In this document: in pieces, positions 4,573 to 48,906 of the stretch
Numbering within the stretch: the stretch's first letter is position 1
Layout of the letters: every line of letters begins with the position of its first letter
Origin: Puccinia triticina
Taxonomy: Eukaryota > Basidiomycota > Pucciniomycetes > Pucciniales > Pucciniaceae
Reading direction: 5' to 3'
Length of the DNA: 64,000 nucleotides
Assembly: GCF_026914185.1 (NCBI RefSeq)
Contig: NC_070558.1
Location: 5,146,001-5,210,000 of the forward strand
Program-made: the position numbers and the translations under genes
The notes under the pieces: model-generated
Told to the model about the DNA's origin: nothing
Database searches by the model: none
Seen by the model: only the letters and a program-made list of their open reading frames with translations

Positions 4573-5536
4573 ATCTTACGAGTTGGCTGGAAGGTTGCGA
4601 CTGGAATGGCGGGATTGAGATGTTGGCAGAGATCTGAAGCGTCCTTGGGGGATGTCGATGGTCATGTCCGCCATGTCGGCGGCGCTCAGCTTTGAACATT
4701 TCTTGAAACGCTTTTGAATATTATTTGTTGGGCAACCTTCAGGACAACTCTCGAGAAAACTCCCAAAAATATTCGAAATCCCTTCGGAGGGCGGGTTGCG
4801 CTCCCAAAGGTTTTTCGAAGTGTATTTGGCTGCAAAGTTTGAAGAATGGATCCGGCCATATCCGCTTTCTGAACCGATCTCCTGCGGATAAAAACCTTAA
4901 AATTCCAACATTTGAAAGATATTAGAAGTTTTTCAAAACAACTCGGAAAAAGTTTGAAGAATTCTCAAAAGTTAACCAATGGGCGCGACTTCGGAGGTTC
5001 TCCAAAAGAAAACTGTCACTTTGAAGGTTTTTCGGATAAAAACTCAAAAAGTGCGTCCGCCGTGTAGGTATGAACAAGAATGGAAGTCAGCTTGAAACCA
5101 GTTGGAAATCATCCTGAAATAAACCATAACTTGCCAAGGAATAATCCATAACTCATCTGGAATTCATCCAGAACTCATCCAAAATATAGGCCTTTCTTGG
5201 CTCCATGACCAGTGTGTCCTTTTCATGGGGATGTGAGATGCGCAGTATGTCATATTGTCCCCCTCATGTACTTGCGTACATCAGGGGGACAATTGGTGTC
5301 TCAACACAAAGTTTTCACTTTTCATGTGGCTGTGAAAAGCCCATCCTGTGATATTTCCACCTCAATGTACGCGCGTACATTAGGGTGACTATTAGCAAAG
5401 TGCAAAAAAGTTCACTTGCATGTGCACATGTGGATTTTGAAAAGCAAAAAAAAAAAAAATCACACAATCATTTTTGTGAAGAGGTCAGGATATGTGGCCA
5501 AACTGGGGTGGCACTGCAATCCAACCTTGACTTACC
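4573..5536. other. Intergenic region with paired hairpins
   Basis: No gene is seen. The proximal part would hold the promoter of the minus-strand gene ending at 3851. 4720-5180 is AT-rich, unrecognised sequence with TTTTCGAAG/TTCGAAA-like words. The distal part holds the two hairpins listed separately and an A run at 5447-5459. Confidence 0.5.
5254..5387. repeat. Two related hairpins centred on GTAC-N4-GTAC
   Basis: The first hairpin, 5254-5293, has 18-bp arms (ATTGTCCCCCTCATGTAC and its complement, one mismatch) around TTGC. The second, about 5357-5387, has AATGTAC around GCGC, with further imperfect pairing. Both share the layout CCxxC-ATGTAC...GTACAT, and both are followed by TGTG/GTGA-type words, so they look like a duplicated palindromic unit or the remains of a small foldback element. 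Confidence 0.7.
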
Positions 5537-6677
5537 TCAGACTTTCACCCCAATACAATAGTTTATCACCATTTTTTTAGCCAAATTCAAATTAATTACA
5601 GCATTTCCAAGAAAATGGGTTTCACTAATTTTACTGCATTGGACTTTGGCTACCCAGTTTGTGATGCGTGGTTGTCCTCCATGCTGGCCTGCAGTCCTGA
5701 CCTGAGCTGAATACGCCCTCCTCACGCTACCCTGACCAACAACCAAGTTGCGTTCCCTCTTGACATTCTCTGGAACAGTAGTTGCCTTCAGATGATGGCA
5801 TCTTGGAAGCGAGTGACTGTTACAGCCAATTTCCAAGTCAAAGTGGTTCAACTTGAGCCTATTGGTGATTACCCAACCTCCCAGGTTGATGTTGAGTGAG
5901 CTGGAAAGGGGTCTTCCAAGGTGCCTCATGTGAGTCGAGAGGCTGGCACGTCCGCAAGCAGGCACAGTAGCTTCATAGGATTCAAATCAGCTCTCATGCA
6001 TTGCCATTAATTCAGAATTCACCAGAACTTACCAGAGGTACCACCCAGTGCCCAATTACCATCATTTGGCCTGGCAGTGATGGCAGTTGGGATGTAAAAA
6101 GGATCATTAACATTACTACAAGAAGTTGCAAGGGAACTCAGACCTTCATTGGGTTGAGTGGCAACTGGCGATGTAATTATGTTTGGTTCAAGATTTTCTC
6201 TATTTCTCAATGGTCTCTTGGTTGCAGTGGTTCTCTCAGTTGTGTTGGTTTATTTTGCAGAGACTTCTTCATGGTGGACTGTCCAACAAGTAGCAGTAGG
6301 GTACTGGCATTGAGGACATTCTTATTAGCGCTTAGAGCTGTACAATTGATTGGATTGTTGGGAAGAGCTTTGACTAGCTCCTTACAAATTAGCTTGGGGG
6401 AGAACAACTTCCATAGTTGTTGTTGAAGAGTTTGATACAAATTAGGAACACTTATGTCCAATTGCTGCATGTAGCTCATGATGCCAGTTTTCTTTGGCTT
6501 GTCATCCTGGTGGAAAATGATTCCACACTTCAACATAAGGATTGAATTTTCAGTGGGTGTGGCTGAAGTCAAAAGATTTCGGGAAAAAGGAGTTGGGGCT
6601 GGAATTTTGGTGCATTTTGCTTTGCTGATATTGTGGAAGTGGGATATTGAGCTAGCACACGGTATTTTCTTGGTCAA
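5537..6677 (-). pseudogene. Unrecognised spliced gene or gene fragment
   Basis: Three minus-strand segments join into one plausible product. Segment 1 (6677-6207) ends ...REPLQPRD-H-stop; deleting one base near 6212 makes it run into segment 2 (RNRENLEPN..., to 6019), so a single frameshift separates them. Segment 2 ends at GGTSG followed by a GTAAGT donor, and an intron to about 5965 would join it to segment 3 (PACGRASLS..., 5965-5537). Segment 3 is basic and polar (VKRERNLVVGQGSVRRAYSAQ). No ATG start is obvious at 6677. I do not recognise the family. The frameshift and the lack of a clear start suggest a decaying gene or an unknown TE fragment. Confidence 0.35.
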
Positions 6678-14777: not shown

Positions 14778-15318
14778 CTAGCTTAACAAAGCCTCTTGGG
14801 CAAAGTGTCTGGGGGACCCCGCCTGGAGGGCTCTCCGCAGGAGAGGCTTATGAGTTATGTCTTGGTTTAAGCAGGAGCAGAAAGGATCTGCTACACTTCA
14901 AATCCCAACTAATATAAAAAAACTGAATACACAGAGTTGTAGATTCTGTTCTTGCAAGGAATTTGAGCCACTTAACTATCTTGTAGCCAGAAAAACAACT
15001 CCTGGATTCCCAAACAAGTGGAGCCTCATTTGGAAGACTTGTGCATTTTTGATCTTTTGAAAAGGTCAACAGATTGTAATAGAAAAAATCTGAGTAGACC
15101 AAATTGTAGAGAAAGAAAAGTAGCATAGGGTACAGATAGGGCATATTGGTGGAGAGGCTGGGGGAGGAGCTATAAAAAATTTAAAACCCTCTCAGCCAAA
15201 TGAACTTTCTGCTCCCGCTTAAAATTTGGGATAATGCGCAAGTCCCTCCCTGCGGGAGGGGCGGCTTTGCCGCCAGCCACAGCGAGCCTCCCACCAGGGG
15301 GGACTTTTGTTAAGTTAG
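14778..15318. mobile_element. Small TIR element with 9-bp duplication (nested in the Copia-B leader)
   Basis: 541 bp. The ends are CTAGCTTAACAAAGCC... and ...GGGACTTTTGTTAAGTTAG. The flanks are GTGGAAGTA (14769-14777) and GTGGCAGTA (15319-15327), 8 of 9 matching. Internal CCTC...GAGG and CCCTCC...GGAGGG palindromes lie next to each end. It belongs to the family whose coding member is at 44367-48358. No coding capacity. Confidence 0.85.
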
Positions 15319-26562: not shown

Positions 26563-27149
26563 CGAACTTAACAAAGTCCCTCAAGACTTTGGGGGTGAAC
26601 TTGCGAAGCGAGCCTCCGTCAGGAGGGACTTACCCCTTAGCTCCCCAAACTTGCGCACCAAGAATGGATTTTCAAGGTTTTTTTTTTTTTTCTACAGCTC
26701 GCCCACCACATCCACTCCTTGTTTATTAGCTCAATGTCATTGGAACATGCTGGAGAAAAGGGTACAGATGTGTACATCTCCCATGATCCCCTCTACATTC
26801 TTGTGGAGAGCAAACTGTGGAAAGTGTGTTGGTGAGCACAGACCCTTGCCGTGCAAAATCCTCATTTTGTGTATATTTCAAGATTTTTTTTGGACCAGAA
26901 GGAATGTTGTGAAGTTACCCAAATTCTGTAGGTTGGACAGGCACAAGCTAATCTTTCACCTAAGCAGCTTTATTCCAAAGAAAGACATGGAAGCAAGGAA
27001 TTATAGAAGTTTGAAAACTCCTGCCACCTAAATTTAGAATCTTGCCCCCGCAAAAAGGGGCGATAAGGCGCAAGTGCCTCCTGCCGAGGGCTGTCGGAGG
27101 CTTGCTTTGCAAGACACACACCCGCAGCAGAGGGACCTTGTTAAGTTTG
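26563..27149. mobile_element. Small TIR element with 9-bp duplication
   Basis: 587 bp. Ends are CGAACTTAACAAAGTCCCTC... and ...GAGGGACCTTGTTAAGTTTG. Flanks AACAAGTAA (26554-26562) and GACAAGTAC (27150-27158) match at 7 of 9. Subterminal blocks GAGCCTCCG and GGAGG(G/C)ACTT are shared between ends. Same terminal motif as 44367-48358. Non-coding. Confidence 0.78.
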
Positions 27150-27450: not shown

Positions 27451-28120
27451 CGAGCTTAACAAAGCCTCACTGTGAGAGCCCCGCAGGGTCTCTGTCTCAC
27501 AGAGAGGCTTACCTGGAAAAACCTGTACCTGGCCTGAGAGCCCCAGGAATATCCACCTGTATTAGGCTTTTTTTCACATTTTCCTTTTTTAGAAATCAAC
27601 CGTTCATCTGTTGAAGTCGCCCCTCGGGACTTAAGGAGTGCTCGGCATTGCGCTTCTTTTGATGCAATTTGAGCCTTGTAGCTCCCAATATAAGGCCTGA
27701 TCCTCCCGGTTGAAATTTCCAATCATGGAGGAAAAGTGGCCGTGTAGGGAGTGAGATTTACTGTACAGAACTGTACAACTCTATTAGTCATCTCAAAGGA
27801 TTCTTGGAAAGTGAGCTCCTTTGAGCCAATCTCCAGGAGTCCAGCTCATGGGAGGAGGGCAATGGTGGCAGGCCTACCACCAATTTGAAGAGGAGATGCA
27901 GGTCTTTCACCGGTTCAAGAGGCGGGTAACATGCCCTCTGGGAAGTGGGGGATTTGGGGGCACAAAGTTGGCCACCTGCAAAAAACACCAACTGCACGCG
28001 GGGCTCTCACGCCAGGAATTGTGGATTGCACGCAAGTCCCTCCCTGACGGGAGGTCGCACTTCGTGCGAGGCGCTTCGCGCCCCTGCCCCCCGGCAGGCG
28101 AGGGACCTGTGCTAAGTTTG
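27451..28120. mobile_element. Small TIR element with perfect 9-bp duplication, subfamily 2 copy 1
   Basis: 670 bp, from CGAGCTTAACAAAGCCTC to ...GACCTGTGCTAAGTTTG, flanked by GGGCGTGGA on both sides (27442-27450, 28121-28129). A second copy of the same element lies at 35278-35956 in the same orientation, highly similar across the interior (for example GAGCTCCTTTGAGCCAATCT). The outer ends each carry a hairpin (CCTC...GAGG; CCCTCC...GAGGG). Confidence 0.92.
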
Positions 28121-29807: not shown

Positions 29808-30484
29808 CTAACTTAACAAAGTCCCTCCTCTGCAGGGCTGAGTGGGGAGCAGAGTGCCGCCGACCGCAGGGAGGGACTTAGACCTTATGTGGGGGAGCTC
29901 GCCTGAGAGCATTGGGCAGAAATCTGGTTCAACTTTGAGAGGATGTAGCTTGCTTGTTTTGCGAGCTACATATGAAGTTCCAAGCATCAAGATGCAAATG
30001 CATCCCGTCTGTCTTTTTATCAACTCTGTTTTTGAAGAGAGTCACTCAAACAAAAAAAGTGAAGGAGAATAAAGACAAAAGAAAATTTCTCCGCTTGGAC
30101 CTGCGGGGCCAGGCACCACCCAAGAAGAGGGTGGTCTTGAGGCTTGCCACTTTTTTCAAAAATTAATCAGAAAATCCCTTGATGGTATCTTGATCAGCTG
30201 TAGAGCTTAAAAAATCAATCATGTATGTATGTCCGTAAGTCCCAATAATGGGGGGGGGGCAGCGTTGAAGCTGCAGGCTACAAAATTCAAAGAGTGATTT
30301 TCCATCACTTTTTGGTGGGTGTTCTCCCACCCAAACAGTTGCTTTAGCCGTATGTCCCTCCCTGCGGGAGGGGTGGCTTCGCCACCAGCCAAACTTAAGC
30401 TCCACCCAAATGAGTTACCCCCCGGACCACCACCTGAGCTCCAAACTCTGACCTCCCGCATGGGGAGGGACTTTGATAAGTTAG
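29808..30484. mobile_element. Small TIR element with perfect 9-bp duplication
   Basis: 677 bp, from CTAACTTAACAAAGTCCC to GGGACTTTGATAAGTTAG, flanked by CCCTATTAT on both sides (29799-29807 and 30485-30493). Each end contains a CCCTCC...GGAGGGACTT or CCCTCCCTGCGGGAGG palindrome. Clearest defining copy of the 9-bp family. Non-coding. Confidence 0.95.
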
Positions 30485-39035: not shown

Positions 39036-39832
39036 TGTCAAGACTCAGGGCTCGCCCCAGAGCAGAGGAAGCGCAAGGAGCGAAACCCTAACCCCGCAAG
39101 GGGGAATGGTGAGTCCGCGCGACCCATAGGTCCATGCATATGCATGTGACTCTCAGACAATAGGAGTAGGCGAGAAGCTGAAACTTTGTTCCTCTCCTTC
39201 TAGCCACGTCTCCACACGACGAAAAGCCTCAGCAATCCAAGAGAAGCACTCCACCAAAAAGGTAAGTAGTGCTCCTTGGATTCGTCACAAGCTGAGGAGC
39301 GAGCAGCTGATCAAAAGATTAATAATCTTATTGCAGCAAGCTTACGCCCGAAGCCGATTCAGACCGCAACGGTTCCAGCCTCATCAATAGGATCTCCAGC
39401 TCAACAAGCGGTAAGTCCATCGATGCAGAGCTTCATAAAGCATTGCCAGTCACTGACTGAGAGAACTGCATGTGCAATAGACTACAGCAGTTCCAGCTTG
39501 CTTCGCACTCGTATTGGCGGACGCTAAAGCATCAAGCCTGATCGAGCATAAGTAAGAGATAACCTATATCTCTCTCTAGATTCCTCCCGGAATTCAGGCA
39601 CTGACTCTAGATTCAGTTGCTGCACACAGGCAGAAGCTCCATCACCACAAACGCGTGGCTCAAGCTGCTCAAGCAGTCCCTTTCAATCTTATTCCATTCT
39701 CATACCAGAGCCGGCAATAGTTCCGCTCTTAGGTACATTATTTGTTTTCTTTCTCTCTAAGTCTCTGAGATTGTCAGATAGACCAAATTCCTAATGCAGA
39801 AATAAAACCTCGCAGTATTGTGGAATCTTTTA
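39036..39832 (+). repeat. 5' LTR of Copia-C
   Basis: 797 bp, TGTCAAGACTC...GGAATCTTTTA. It contains AATAAA at 39801 and GCTCTTAGGTACATT near 39726, which is shared with the solo LTR at 10494-11259. Confidence 0.95.
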
Positions 39833-44100: not shown

Positions 44101-44849
44101 TGGCGGGATGTCAAGACTCAGGGCTCGCCCCAGAGCAAAGGAAGCGCAAGGAGCGAAACCCTAACCCCGCAAGGGGGAATGGTGAGTCCGCGCGACCCAT
44201 AGGTCCATGCATATGCATGTGACTCTCAGACAATAGGAGTAGGCAAGAAGCTGAAACTTTGTTCCTCTCCTTCTAGCCACGTCTCCACACGACAAAGAGC
44301 CTAAGCGATCCAAGAGAAGCACTCCACCAAAAAGGTAAGTAGTGCTCCTTGGATTCGTCACAAGCTCGAACTTAACTAAGTCCCTCCCCCGCCTGAGGCT
44401 TTGCCGGAGGGACTTACGCCCTATCAGGAATTCTCGCGTGAGACTATTCTGAGTTTTGGTGGTAGTCAACTTTGAGTGCCCAGAACTCAACCTAGATGAT
44501 TAGCTAGCAATTCAAAAACTTAATGCATGATAGGCCTACATCGTGTCTTTCTTCTCATACAATTTGGGACCATCTCCTCTTCATCTTCGTGCTGTTTTTA
44601 TTTTTTGAAAACTATGTAAAACTTGATTCCCCAGGTTCGGAGCGGATCACTAAACAACAAAGCCCGTGCGCGATTGGCAGATCTGATACAACGTGATATC
44701 ACATACGTGCATCCTTTTTTTTCACTTCCTCTCTCCCTACTGACATTTTAGCTTTTATCTCTCGACCATTAGATCCGATCATTCTCCTGAAACCCAACCA
44801 CCCCACGCAAAAAGTTTGACCGAGTCAGCTACCGGCAAGAGCTGACAAG

Positions 44850-46636
44850 ATGACGATGTGCCTACAAAACCTACCAGCACTGTCGGACCAGGCCGAAAAG
44901 TTGTTATTCATCGATCAAGTCTTACATGCGTACAATCTAGACGCAAAGCGCTTCATCCAGGCCTACCTCCAAAACGAATGTCCAAAAATCAAATCAAATC
45001 GTCGAATTTGGGGGGCACCCTATGGATGGCCGTCGACGATGCTGCTTATCAACACCATCAAGGAGCTTGTACACAAGACAACTGAAGGAAAGGCTCGATG
45101 GAGCGCCTACATCTTGTCAGAGGTGTGTGTGTTCTGATAGTGCAAAATCAGATCATTACTTCGTGTTTCCACTCAAGGCTTTGTTTTCTTGCTGGACAGG
45201 CAAAGCTTATCATTGCCGGAGAAGGCGGTGCACATGGTCAATTCCCCAAGGGTAACTATTACAACTCAAAAAAAATTACGCCCGCCTTTTTCTCTGATGA
45301 AGCAAAAGCCGCTCGCATGGAACAACACGTCACACTGGATATGCCATTCCTTTATAATCTCATCCTTCACAAGGTGCAAAGAGACCGACCGTCACCTACA
45401 GATCCTGCCCAGAAGAATACAGCCTCGGGATCGGACAGAAAAGGAAAGAAACAACTAGCGGCCACAACTTGTGACTCGGGACTGGACAAAGGAGGTAACT
45501 CTGGCAGCCTAATATACGATTCAGATACATCAGATTCTGATACTGGTCTAGCGGAATCGGCAAAGCAAAAGAACAAGAAAAAACTGAAAACCGGAGATGA
45601 TTTGCTCACACGAAAGATGAAAACTAGTCCGGCGGAAACGGAAGACGTCGAAGAAGAGCTTGATCGTAAAAACCGACCTCACATCATTGCCGCTACCGTC
45701 TGCTCAATGGTTGCTTTTGGGGCAAACCGTCGCGATAACGCCCTTCAGATTCAAAATGCTGTTGTTTTGCTTGCATGTGGAGTGACCGAAAGAGTGAGCA
45801 GTTATCTCAACTACATCGGTCTTGCCTCTTCCCGACGAACAGCCCATCGCGCCCTCAGTTCACTTGGAAGAATTGCAGAAAGAACGGTCATCAGAAAAAT
45901 GGGAAAGTCACAAGCCCCCTTGGCACCTATTATATGCATGGACAACATTGACTTCGAAGAGTCCATTCACGAGAAATCAGTCGAAAAAACCACTCAGATG
46001 TTTCACGGAACGTGGGGCTACCTGCATGTTCCCGACCGTACGCTCATTGATAAGTTTGATCCAAAAGACTTCTCCCTCGAAAGTTTCAAGACAGCAATCG
46101 AAAGATCTTCAGAGATGAAGGTTCAACCATCGTGGTTTCTTCCCGACACCGCTTCTGCTGAACACTTCCGAGCTGTACTCAAAAGCCAGATCTTACGAGT
46201 CCTGCTTGAGTTTCTAGCGACCCCAGAAGATAAGCAACATCCCTTGAACAAGGATCCACCCCCAATCGATCCGATAGATGTGAAAGAACCCGACATTACA
46301 ATGTTCAAGCTCATGATTGCCTCGGACAACTCTACTGAGGGTGTGGGCGAGGTCCTACAAGGGTTCTTGCGCCAAACAGATCTAAGCTCGACCGATTTTT
46401 TCTCTCGGCTCCAGGTTATTGACGGTGATCTCGCCACCTGTATGAACGTTGAAAGTCTGAGGGCTCAACGAAAGCCCAGCGGTCACGTCGAAGAAGATCT
46501 TTCCGCCATTGTGACTCTTCTTGGGGCCTCTCATGTTCTGTGGAATATTGCACAGTCGTTCTTTCTTCTTCATTTCGGTAATTCTTCCGACTCCGAAGAT
46601 TTAGGTGCATGGCATACACTACAAACCCCTCAATGA
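44850..46636 (+). pseudogene. DUF6589-type protein, candidate transposase, C-terminally truncated
   Basis: ATG at 44850. Exon 1 (44850-45122, 91 residues) ends SAYILSE with a GTGTGT donor; the 77-nt intron ends GGACAG at 45199; exon 2 continues in phase (AKLIIAGEGGAHGQF...) to TGA at 46636, 569 aa. Residues 1-180 are helical with FPKGNYYNSKKITPAFF. 180-250 is a charged low-complexity linker. 310-569 is the DUF6589 core: PIICMDNIDFEE (about 336-344), MFHGTWGYLHVPD, LMIASDNSTEGVGE (462-474), RLQVIDGDLATCMN (494-507) and LGASHVLWNIAQSFFLLHFGN. Three Asp-centred motifs after hydrophobic strands could be an RNase H-fold active site; that is my inference. Family members as I recall them extend about 200-300 residues past GAWHTL, so the C-terminus is lost at the deletion junction. 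Confidence 0.8.
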
Positions 46637-46639
46637 TAT

Positions 46640-47837
46640 CAATCTTATCCATGTCACCAGTACAAGAATGGTATCTCCGAGCGAATGTACTTCCAGGGTC
46701 CAGATGGCCAGCTCAAATCTCACGAGCGTCGTGGATAGCTCGGAGGACCTGCCAACTTAGATTACGTGTTGGGGCGTAAATCAGAGTCGGTGGAATCTCT
46801 TCATCTGGGACCATGCTTCTGGGACCGAAAAGCCTCTTGAGGTCGTTACAGGATCCAAGAGAACATTACATTGGCACTCGTACCAAACGAATCTCCGGGC
46901 GGGTAAGTTCACCCTGTATTTGAGTCATGTTTTCATCTTCAAGCTGTTCAAAATTTTCTCAATGGCAACTGGTCGGCAGGTTGCTGATAAGAGAAGGATT
47001 GGGACACCATAAGTTGCGAGGAGCCTGGCGCCTAAATCTCCATAAGACGGGCGAAAGATTCCTCGGTCTTGGATTTTCATGTGAGAGCTGATTTTTTTCC
47101 CGAGCCCACTTGCAACAAGGCCCCACACGTAAACCATATGCGCTTCGTCAATGACTGTTAATACCAACTTAGACTGAAATTTTCGATCAAAGAACATCCT
47201 TCGGAACATCCCGTTGTTCAACAGAACCTCGGGGCTCTGTTTTTCAAAAATTCAAATTCATTCAATGCCTCAGGGAGATTTTTCAAAAGATGGCAAAGAC
47301 AACTAACCAGATAGACAAAGCCAAAGTCCCCTCGGATAACCTGCGCTTCGATTTCAGGTGTTAAGTTCATTTTGGTCAAGTTCACGGCCTTGATGTTGAC
47401 GGCTTTTTTCTCCAAAACCTTTGTTGAGATACACATACAGATTAGTTCTGTTGTACACATTGCTAAGTTATCCAGGACTAACTCACTTGATTATCGCCAA
47501 GAGAATCCAAAGGATTCAAAACAATCACGATAGGTTTTTTGTAAGCAGGAAAGAGGCGATAGTATACCTCGCCGATCCTTGTTTTACCAAAACCGGTCCC
47601 AGCAAGCGTAAAAGTATGCTTGCCGCGGACCAAGCTGACCACGGTTTCCATCTGAATTGGTTTCAGGGGTTCCGAGTAAAACTTGGCATTTGTTGTTCTG
47701 ATGTGTTCCTCAAGCTTTTCACGGGACATGTTTTGGAGATCTTCACGTAGTGATAATTTCGACTGTATGTTTTCCTGTTGGGACACATTGAGAGCATCGA
47801 GTGGGCTATGAGCATTCTCGTCATTTGTCGTCGCCAT
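46640..47837 (-). pseudogene. RecQ-like helicase, C-terminally truncated
   Basis: ATG at 47837. Exon 1 (47837-47487, 117 residues) has the Q-like region FYSEPLKPIQ, Walker A AGTGFGKT (79-86) and motif Ia VLNPLDSLGDNQ, the RecQ form. Introns 47486-47419 (68 nt) and 47307-47237 (71 nt) have GT-AG ends and phase 0. Exon 2 ends DFGFVYL; exon 3 begins SPEVLLNNGMF and holds motif II VIDEAHMVYVWG and motif III LLLSATCRP. A one-base frameshift near 46935 leads to MTQIQGELTRPEIRLVR; TAA and TGA stops follow in the same frame (after RVPM and after AREI), then STFARRYHSCTGDMDKIDIIEGF. Motifs V-VI are missing: the gene ends at the junction with the DUF6589 gene. Confidence 0.8.
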
Positions 47838-48906
47838 AGTTAGGGCGCAAGTAGGTGGTATCTCTTCTGGCGTTGTTCTCTGCTTGTTGTAACTTGTGAT
47901 TCTGTGCGGATGTTTGCGATGGCGATCAGTTGGCCTTTTTTTTTGTCATGCTTCAATGACCTTGCACGGAGTGCAAGGACTAGTCTCGATCAGGCTTGCT
48001 AGCCTCGATCAATCCTCGAAACGGTCGTGTTTTCGGCGCTAAGTAAAAAGTTGGTCTGTGCTCATAAATCCCGGTGGTATGCTGGGATATGATAGTTATT
48101 TTGCTTTTATTCGAGATTTTACAAAAAAAATTATAAAAAAAATTGAACAAAGATACAAAGAATGGTAAAAATATAACAAATAAGGGGATGAGGAGGCGCA
48201 TCAGGAAAAATGGGTTGGAAGAACGGAGGATGAGATCTGCAGGAGTGGCGAGGAATATAACGTTTTCACGGATCAAATATCCGAAAGTCTCACGCGAGAA
48301 TTCCTGATAGGGCATAAGTCCCTCCGGCGAAGCCTCAGGCGGGACTTAGTTAAGTTCGTCACAAGCTGAGGAGCGAGCAGCTGATCAAAAGATTAATAAT
48401 CTTATTGCAGCAAGCTTACGCCCGAAGCCGATTCAGACCGCAACGGTTCCAGCCTCATCAATAGGATCTCCAGCTCAACAAGCGGTAAGTCCATCGATGC
48501 AGAGCCTCATAAAGCATTGCCAGTCACTGACTGAGAGAACTGCATGTGCAATAGACTACAGCAGTTCCAGCTTGCTTCGCACTCGTATTGGCGGACGCTA
48601 AAGCATCAAGCCTGATCGAGCATAAGTAAGAGATAACCTATATCTCTCTCTAGATTCCTCCCGGAATTCAGGCACTGACTCTAGATTCAGTTGCTGCACA
48701 CAGGCAGAAGCTCCATCACCACAAACGCGTGGCTCAAGCTGCTCAAGCAGTCCCTTTCAATCTTATTCCATTCTCATACCAGAGCCGGCAATAGTTCCGC
48801 TCTTAGGTACATTATTTGTTTTCTTTCTCTCTAAGTCTCTGAGATTGTCAGATAGACCAAATTCCTAATGCAGAAATAAAACCTCGCAGTATTGTGGAAT
48901 CTTTTA

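What the first reader, a model, noticed from the sequence alone, without database searches (positions are those of the whole stretch)
44367..48358. TIR transposon carrying a DUF6589-type gene and a RecQ-like helicase
Seen: 73-79 bp TIRs, a perfect 9-bp duplication TCACAAGCT, and exact restoration of a 797-bp LTR when it is removed. Two convergent spliced genes: a DUF6589-type protein and a helicase with AGTGFGKT, VLNPLDSLGDNQ, VIDEAH and LLSAT. Known: RecQ-family helicases have this motif form; 9-bp duplications are usual in Mutator-like elements, but no MULE transposase is present. Inference: the DUF6589 protein, with Asp motifs CMDNID, ASDN and VIDGDL, is the transposase of an undescribed superfamily that uses its own helicase.
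Basis: partly seen in the sequence, partly recalled or inferred. Interest (0 to 1): 0.92.

Follow-up and report, generated by a model that had tools for sequence, protein, structure and literature searches.

The report
Broken helicase-carrying transposon in rust
A piece of DNA from what is likely a rust fungus holds a broken copy of a jumping gene, bounded by inverted repeats and a 9-base duplication, whose family pairs a DUF6589 protein (predicted to be the transposase) with its own DNA helicase, and which likely belongs to a known but little-studied group called AcademH.

Summary
In detail: 79/73-bp TIRs, a perfect 9-bp duplication TCACAAGCT, insertion into a 797-bp LTR, and convergent DUF6589 and RecQ-like helicase sequence.

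The two genes form a unit. In the host genome 77 of 83 DUF6589 clusters have the helicase within 10 kb, all downstream and convergent; distances of the two proteins correlate at r = 0.97 over 12 loci, and both are under purifying selection. Nine of 19 other gene-pair loci examined end in CNAACTTAA with exact 9-bp duplications. AlphaFold2 gives DUF6589 an RNase-H-like core with a helical insertion, most like Hermes, P element, ISCth4 and RAG1; D190, D352 and E596 are the likely triad.

'Undescribed superfamily' is not supported: AcademH (Kojima 2020) already covers helicase-encoding transposons with 9-10-bp duplications in fungi and animals. Homology to Academ transposase could not be tested. 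What looks new: DUF6589 as likely transposase, high copy number, and a conserved dyad inside most TIRs.

The parts
44358..44366 (.). left copy of the 9-bp target site duplication TCACAAGCT
48359..48367 (.). right copy of the 9-bp target site duplication
44367..44445 (+). left TIR (79 bp)
48286..48358 (-). right TIR (73 bp)
44378..44415 (+). dyad inside the left TIR: arms 44378-44386 AAGTCCCTC and 44407-44415 GAGGGACTT
48316..48347 (-). dyad inside the right TIR: arms AAGTCCCGC (48339-48347) and GAGGGACTT (48316-48324), one mismatch
44850..45122 (+). predicted first exon of the DUF6589 gene (91 codons from ATG)
   Evidence: sequence; GT-AG intron 45123-45199; spliced reading without stop
45200..46636 (+). 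second exon of the DUF6589 gene, truncated: DUF6589 homology ends at the deletion junction (about 46620), then a stop at 46634-46636
46619..46622 (.). junction of the internal deletion that joins mid-DUF6589 to mid-helicase
46620..47837 (-). remnant of the RecQ-like helicase gene: ATG at 47837, homologous blocks about 47810-47484, 47421-47308, 47236-46838 and 46946 to the junction, with stops/frame changes in the last blocks; 3' half deleted
44109..44366 (+). left part of the interrupted LTR (target)
48359..48906 (+). right part of the interrupted LTR (target)
39036..39832 (+). intact 797-bp sister LTR that shows the empty site

Best explanation
The window element is a 3,992-bp, internally deleted copy of a two-gene TIR transposon family in which the DUF6589 protein is predicted to be a DDE transposase and the co-carried RecQ-like helicase likely assists it, and the family is likely the AcademH lineage of Academ transposons. 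Shown by the calls: conserved ends (CNAACTTAAC plus an internal dyad), 9-bp target duplications, a recurrent convergent gene pair, congruent protein distances, purifying selection on both genes, a transposase-like predicted fold with conserved D, D and E, and a deletion seen only in this copy. Inferred: the DUF6589 protein pairs the two ends, cuts with D190/D352/E596 (P0103 numbering) and inserts them with a 9-base stagger, in the manner of hAT, P and RAG enzymes. Inferred with less support: the helicase acts on the DNA intermediates, unwinding the hairpin-prone ends or the strands at the cut so that end pairing, strand transfer or gap repair can finish. The window copy lost the 3' halves of both genes and could move only with proteins supplied in trans.
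Confidence: 0.75

Rival explanations
1. A new transposon superfamily: DUF6589 is a DDE transposase lineage of its own, and its likeness to AcademH (helicase, 9-bp TSD, fungal host) is convergent.
For: No held paper names DUF6589, PF20231 or IPR046496 as a transposase; Academ homology is untested; copy number is high where AcademH is called low-copy.
Against: Helicase, 9-bp TSD and fungal host all fit the published AcademH (passages); the absence in print was searched only in the held library.
Confidence: 0.17
2. A KolobokH element: a fungal Kolobok transposon that encodes a RecQ helicase.
For: KolobokH is fungal and carries a RecQ helicase (passage of PMC9587614).
Against: TSDs are 9 bp of varied sequence, not the 4-bp TTAA of Kolobok (recalled); [quoted passage not shown]
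Confidence: 0.02
3. A Mutator-like element (Pack-MULE type) that captured fragments of two host genes, moved by a MULE transposase elsewhere.
For: Long TIRs and 9-bp TSDs are usual for MULEs (recalled), and the window copy holds only gene fragments.
Against: The same convergent pair recurs in 77 clusters, co-evolves and is under purifying selection, unlike captured passengers; only DUF6589 is found by Pfam in the longer protein, whose predicted fold is itself that of a transposase.
Confidence: 0.03

Closest known systems
AcademH, a lineage of the Academ superfamily (Kojima 2020, Mob DNA 11:15; not held, known here through passages of PMC10045372 and PMC10799480)
   Same: encodes a helicase; 9- or 10-bp TSDs; found in fungi including Basidiomycota (passages)
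   Different: high copy number here; layout of two convergent genes and the TIR dyad could not be compared; transposase homology untested
KolobokH (passage of PMC9587614)
   Same: fungal DNA transposon with a RecQ helicase
   Different: TSD length and sequence; helicase placement
hAT (Hermes), P element and RAG1/Transib transposases
   Same: predicted RNase-H-like core with a helical insertion between the second Asp and the last Glu
   Different: no Pfam domain of these families in DUF6589; they carry no RecQ-like helicase; TSD lengths differ (recalled: 8, 8 and 5 bp)
RecQ helicases (RECQ5, RECQ1, WRN, BLM, bacterial RecQ)
   Same: helicase core matches RECQ5 at E 5e-11 and TIGR00614 recQ_fam at 101 bits over residues 36-405 of 449
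   Different: below NCBIfam's curated cut-off of 219.8 bits; the C-terminal part shows no Pfam domain; carried by a transposon

Membership tests
AcademH | encodes a helicase next to the transposase | tested here: met
   77 of 83 clusters; DEAD and Helicase_C over cut-off in L040
AcademH | 9- or 10-bp target site duplications | tested here: met
   22 of 28 two-ended rows at most 1 mismatch over 9 bp, 19 exact; 4 of 10 random gene pairs exact
AcademH | host is a fungus or an animal | tested here: met
   best protein matches are Puccinia; the genome itself is unnamed
AcademH | Academ-type DDD/E transposase by sequence homology | not testable with these tools
   paper and Repbase sequences not held; only a DDE-type fold could be predicted
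KolobokH | 4-bp TTAA duplication (recalled) | tested here: not met
   9-bp duplications of varied sequence
Mutator-like elements | MULE transposase domain | tested here: not met
   Pfam scan of P0103, P0114 and the window fragments finds DUF6589 only
hAT / P element | their own transposase domain by sequence, and 8-bp duplications (recalled) | tested here: not met
   Pfam scan; 9-bp, not 8-bp, duplications
DDE (RNase-H-fold) transposases in general | RNase-H-like fold with a conserved D-D-E/D triad | tested here: inconclusive
   predicted fold and rows 1-40 are such recombinases, conserved D190/D352/E596; but Foldseek E is above 0.001, there was no residue-level superposition, and no activity is known
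RecQ helicases | score over the curated cut-off of a RecQ model | tested here: not met
   TIGR00614 at 101 bits of 219.8 required: RecQ-like, not filed as RecQ proper

The most novel reading that the evidence does not exclude
The transposon's own RecQ-like helicase exists to open its structured ends: most TIRs of this family hold a dyad kept by paired changes (AAGTCCCTC/GAGGGACTT in some subfamilies, AAGCCTCTC/GAGAGGCTT in others), so the ends are hairpins that the helicase resolves for the DUF6589 transposase, a helicase-licensed form of DDE transposition.
Probability: 0.2. Interest if true: 0.75.

Novelty: new member of a known kind. Interest (0 to 1): 0.45.

Why it matters
DUF6589 is a Pfam family of unknown function; evidence that it is a DDE transposase with a helicase as constant companion would let annotators mark both gene sets as transposon genes. 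In rust genomes many such helicases now carry names like 'ATP-dependent DNA helicase sgs1' (names). The family leaves 1,680 exact matches to two end motifs in one 123-Mb genome. A conserved dyad in the ends together with a co-evolving helicase makes a concrete question testable: why some cut-and-paste transposons carry a helicase.

Tried and rejected
Rejected: KolobokH (TSDs, gene layout), Pack-MULE (recurrent co-evolving pair, transposase-like fold), Helitron (these elements have TIRs and TSDs). Not useful: viral-contig scan with the DUF6589 alignment (150 pattern matches, none confirmed); genome-contig scan with the helicase (7 pattern matches, none confirmed); PADLOC (no family for P0103; the helicase matches DpdF and other helicase models, taken as generic kinship). 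Literature: the AcademH paper, Muszewska 2017 and a Kojima review are not held. Foldseek gave no E below 0.001. The random control used guessed lengths for contigs C14 and C17 (5.5 and 5.0 Mb; C14 is really 5.31 Mb). One search allowed variable TSD lengths and gave 10-11 bp in places; with the boundary fixed before CN of CNAACTTAAC the extra letters are the element's own C or G or a chance match next to it. L066 shows a 146-bp inverted repeat of another kind, not followed up.
Full report
What is there. The element spans 44367-48358 (3,992 bp) with TIRs of 79 and 73 bp and a perfect 9-bp duplication TCACAAGCT. It sits in the 3' LTR of an LTR retrotransposon (Copia-like by eye from the ORF; not tested). 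Carried in convergent orientation are DUF6589 coding sequence (PF20231, E 7e-28) and helicase coding sequence.

This copy is broken. Compared with a longer relative (L039, 6,410 bp), homology stops in the middle of DUF6589 and resumes in the middle of the helicase at window 46619-46620, with about 2.3 kb of L039 missing. A 301-bp probe across the junction is continuous only at the window; none of the 12 other genomic matches crosses it, and in the nearest relative the halves are about 2.2 kb apart. The DUF6589 remnant ends at the equivalent of residue 417 of 743 of P0103, and the helicase homology ends before the C-terminal motif region, with stops and frame changes in its last blocks. Internal deletions of this kind are common after incomplete gap repair in cut-and-paste transposition (established knowledge). 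The copy could move only with proteins supplied in trans (inference).

The family. The host genome (122.8 Mb, 18 contigs, unnamed) encodes DUF6589 proteins closest to Puccinia triticina, so it is likely a rust. PF20231 gives 104 matches (102 of 223 candidates scored), merged into 83 clusters; a window helicase exon gives 147 matches, 138 clusters. In 77 of 83 DUF6589 clusters a helicase lies within 10 kb, in all 77 downstream and convergent; random placement gave a mean of 2.3 and a maximum of 9 in 500 trials. The converse is weaker: 62 of 138 helicase clusters have no scored DUF6589 neighbour. Nine pairs of consecutive locus tags, found by eye in capped lists, show the same neighbourhood in other species: PGTG_13098/13099, PGTG_17611/17610, PGTG_17027/17026, PSTG_01050/01049, PSHT_04139/04140, MJO28_008683/008684, MJO28_006874/006875, PCANC_07072/07071, PCANC_18941/18940 (DUF6589 first; names).

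Ends and duplications. Among 28 two-ended rows with well-matched ends, mostly short copies brought in by their TIRs, 22 have 9-bp duplications with at most one mismatch and 19 are exact; reshuffled flanks give 0.15 on average, at most 2. L009 and L038 are the same element, and L010 is a near-identical duplicate locus. The six rows without a duplication are L018, L026 (second pair), L033, L056, L044/L045 and the window copy at 26563 (2 mismatches). Loci where only one end was found (L052/L053, L054/L055) were not in that table. Of 9 gene-pair loci chosen by hand, mostly because a TIR match lay near them, 5 have exact duplications (C10, C13, C8:4.7 Mb, C3, C6), 2 have TIRs without one (L040; C18:1.78 Mb), 1 has one end only (C2:1.147 Mb) and 1 shows no TIR pair (L041). 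Because that choice was biased, 10 more gene pairs were drawn at random from 55 eligible: 4 of 10 have CNAACTTAA ends with an exact 9-bp duplication (L060, L063, L064, L068) and 6 do not. Other duplication lengths (6-8, 10, 11), other offsets, and shuffled motifs over 80,898 end pairs gave nothing. Genome-wide, CNAACTTAACNAAGNCNCTC has 805 exact matches and AACTTAACNNAAGTCCC 875, against 0 and 1 for the reversed patterns; by their spacing the two cannot match the same place.

A dyad inside the TIR. Next to the terminal CNAACTTAAC most ends have a 9-base arm whose reverse complement lies a little further in (loops of about 14 to 54 bases by the offsets). In 78 of 96 distinct ends the best arms pair at 8 or 9 of 9 positions, against 1.6% for scrambled arms; 18 ends do not reach 8. 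AAGTCCCTC ends have GAGGGACTT in 42 of 47. AAGCCTCTC ends have GAGAGGCTT in 9 of 12, and GAGGGACTT is the best partner in none; some of these were fetched by that very arm, which does not bias the partner. So two positions change in pairs. Mixed forms also occur, e.g. AAGCCCCTC with GAGGGACTT in 2 of 2. Eight ends folded as single-stranded DNA have this stem in the minimum-energy structure, with z-scores from -0.7 to -6.7; in the weakest, L064 left, the centroid loses it. The dyad may be a hairpin or a two-fold protein-binding site; the data do not decide. Ends within a subfamily are related, so the 96 are not independent.

What the helicase is. It has DEAD and Helicase_C domains, matches RECQ5 and RECQ1 among solved structures (E 5e-11 and about 1e-10) and the RecQ-family model over its core at 101 bits, under the cut-off of 219.8. 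Over 12 gene-pair loci (L039, L040, L041 and the random ten less L066, whose DUF6589 matched only as a fragment) the distances between helicases and between DUF6589 proteins correlate at r = 0.97, with 0 of 5000 permutations as high. In the five pairs with measurable dS, dN/dS is 0.10-0.33 for DUF6589 and 0.07-0.60 for the helicase, the 0.60 from a nearly identical pair. Both proteins have been kept by selection while the elements spread, so the helicase is likely needed for spread (inference).

What is known. AcademH, a lineage of Academ transposons encoding a helicase in animals and fungi, was published in 2020 (title in reference lists; the paper itself not seen). PMC10045372 (passages) gives 9- or 10-bp TSDs for AcademH and 3 or 4 for AcademX. 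PMC10799480 (passages) names DEAD and Helicase_C domains as from AcademH, KolobokH or Helitron, and Basidiomycota among AcademH hosts, at low copy. PMC9587614 (passages) describes KolobokH. The element fits AcademH on helicase, TSD length and host; the homology of its transposase to Academ could not be tested, so the filing is likely, not shown. PMC12210899 on rust transposons (passages) cites AcademH only in general. Searches for 'DUF6589' and for 'PF20231' or 'IPR046496' found no paper on this protein family; the one 'PF20231' hit is an optics paper by its title.

Verdict.

Noticed in passing
window 29808-30484: 677-bp non-coding-looking copy with the same ends and an exact 9-bp duplication CCCTATTAT.
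   Followed up: partly
window 27451-28120: 670-bp copy with diverged ends (CGAGCTTAAC, CAAACTTAGC) and an exact 9-bp duplication GGGCGTGGA.
   Followed up: partly
window 26563-27149: 587-bp copy with the same ends; its flanking 9-mers differ at 2 places, though a 7-bp ACAAGTA repeat flanks it.
   Followed up: partly
window 14778-15318: 541-bp candidate copy with GTGGAAGTA/GTGGCAGTA flanks (1 mismatch).
   Followed up: no
L040 (G000:C4:3797000-3804600), helicase 4574-5989 on -: The helicase core is one open frame of 472 aa here, while in L039 and the window the same part is spread over several exons: intron content differs between subfamilies.
   Followed up: no
L060, L068, L069: Some elements have unlike ends: one end AACTTAACACAAGTCCC, the other AAC/GCTTAACNAAGCCNC; the two end types may be bound differently.
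   Followed up: no
G000, 62 of 138 helicase clusters: Many helicase copies stand without a scored DUF6589 match: degraded pairs, unscored candidates, or helicases separated from the transposon.
   Followed up: no
L066 2824 and 8141: A gene-pair locus bracketed by a 146-bp inverted repeat of another sequence type.
   Followed up: no
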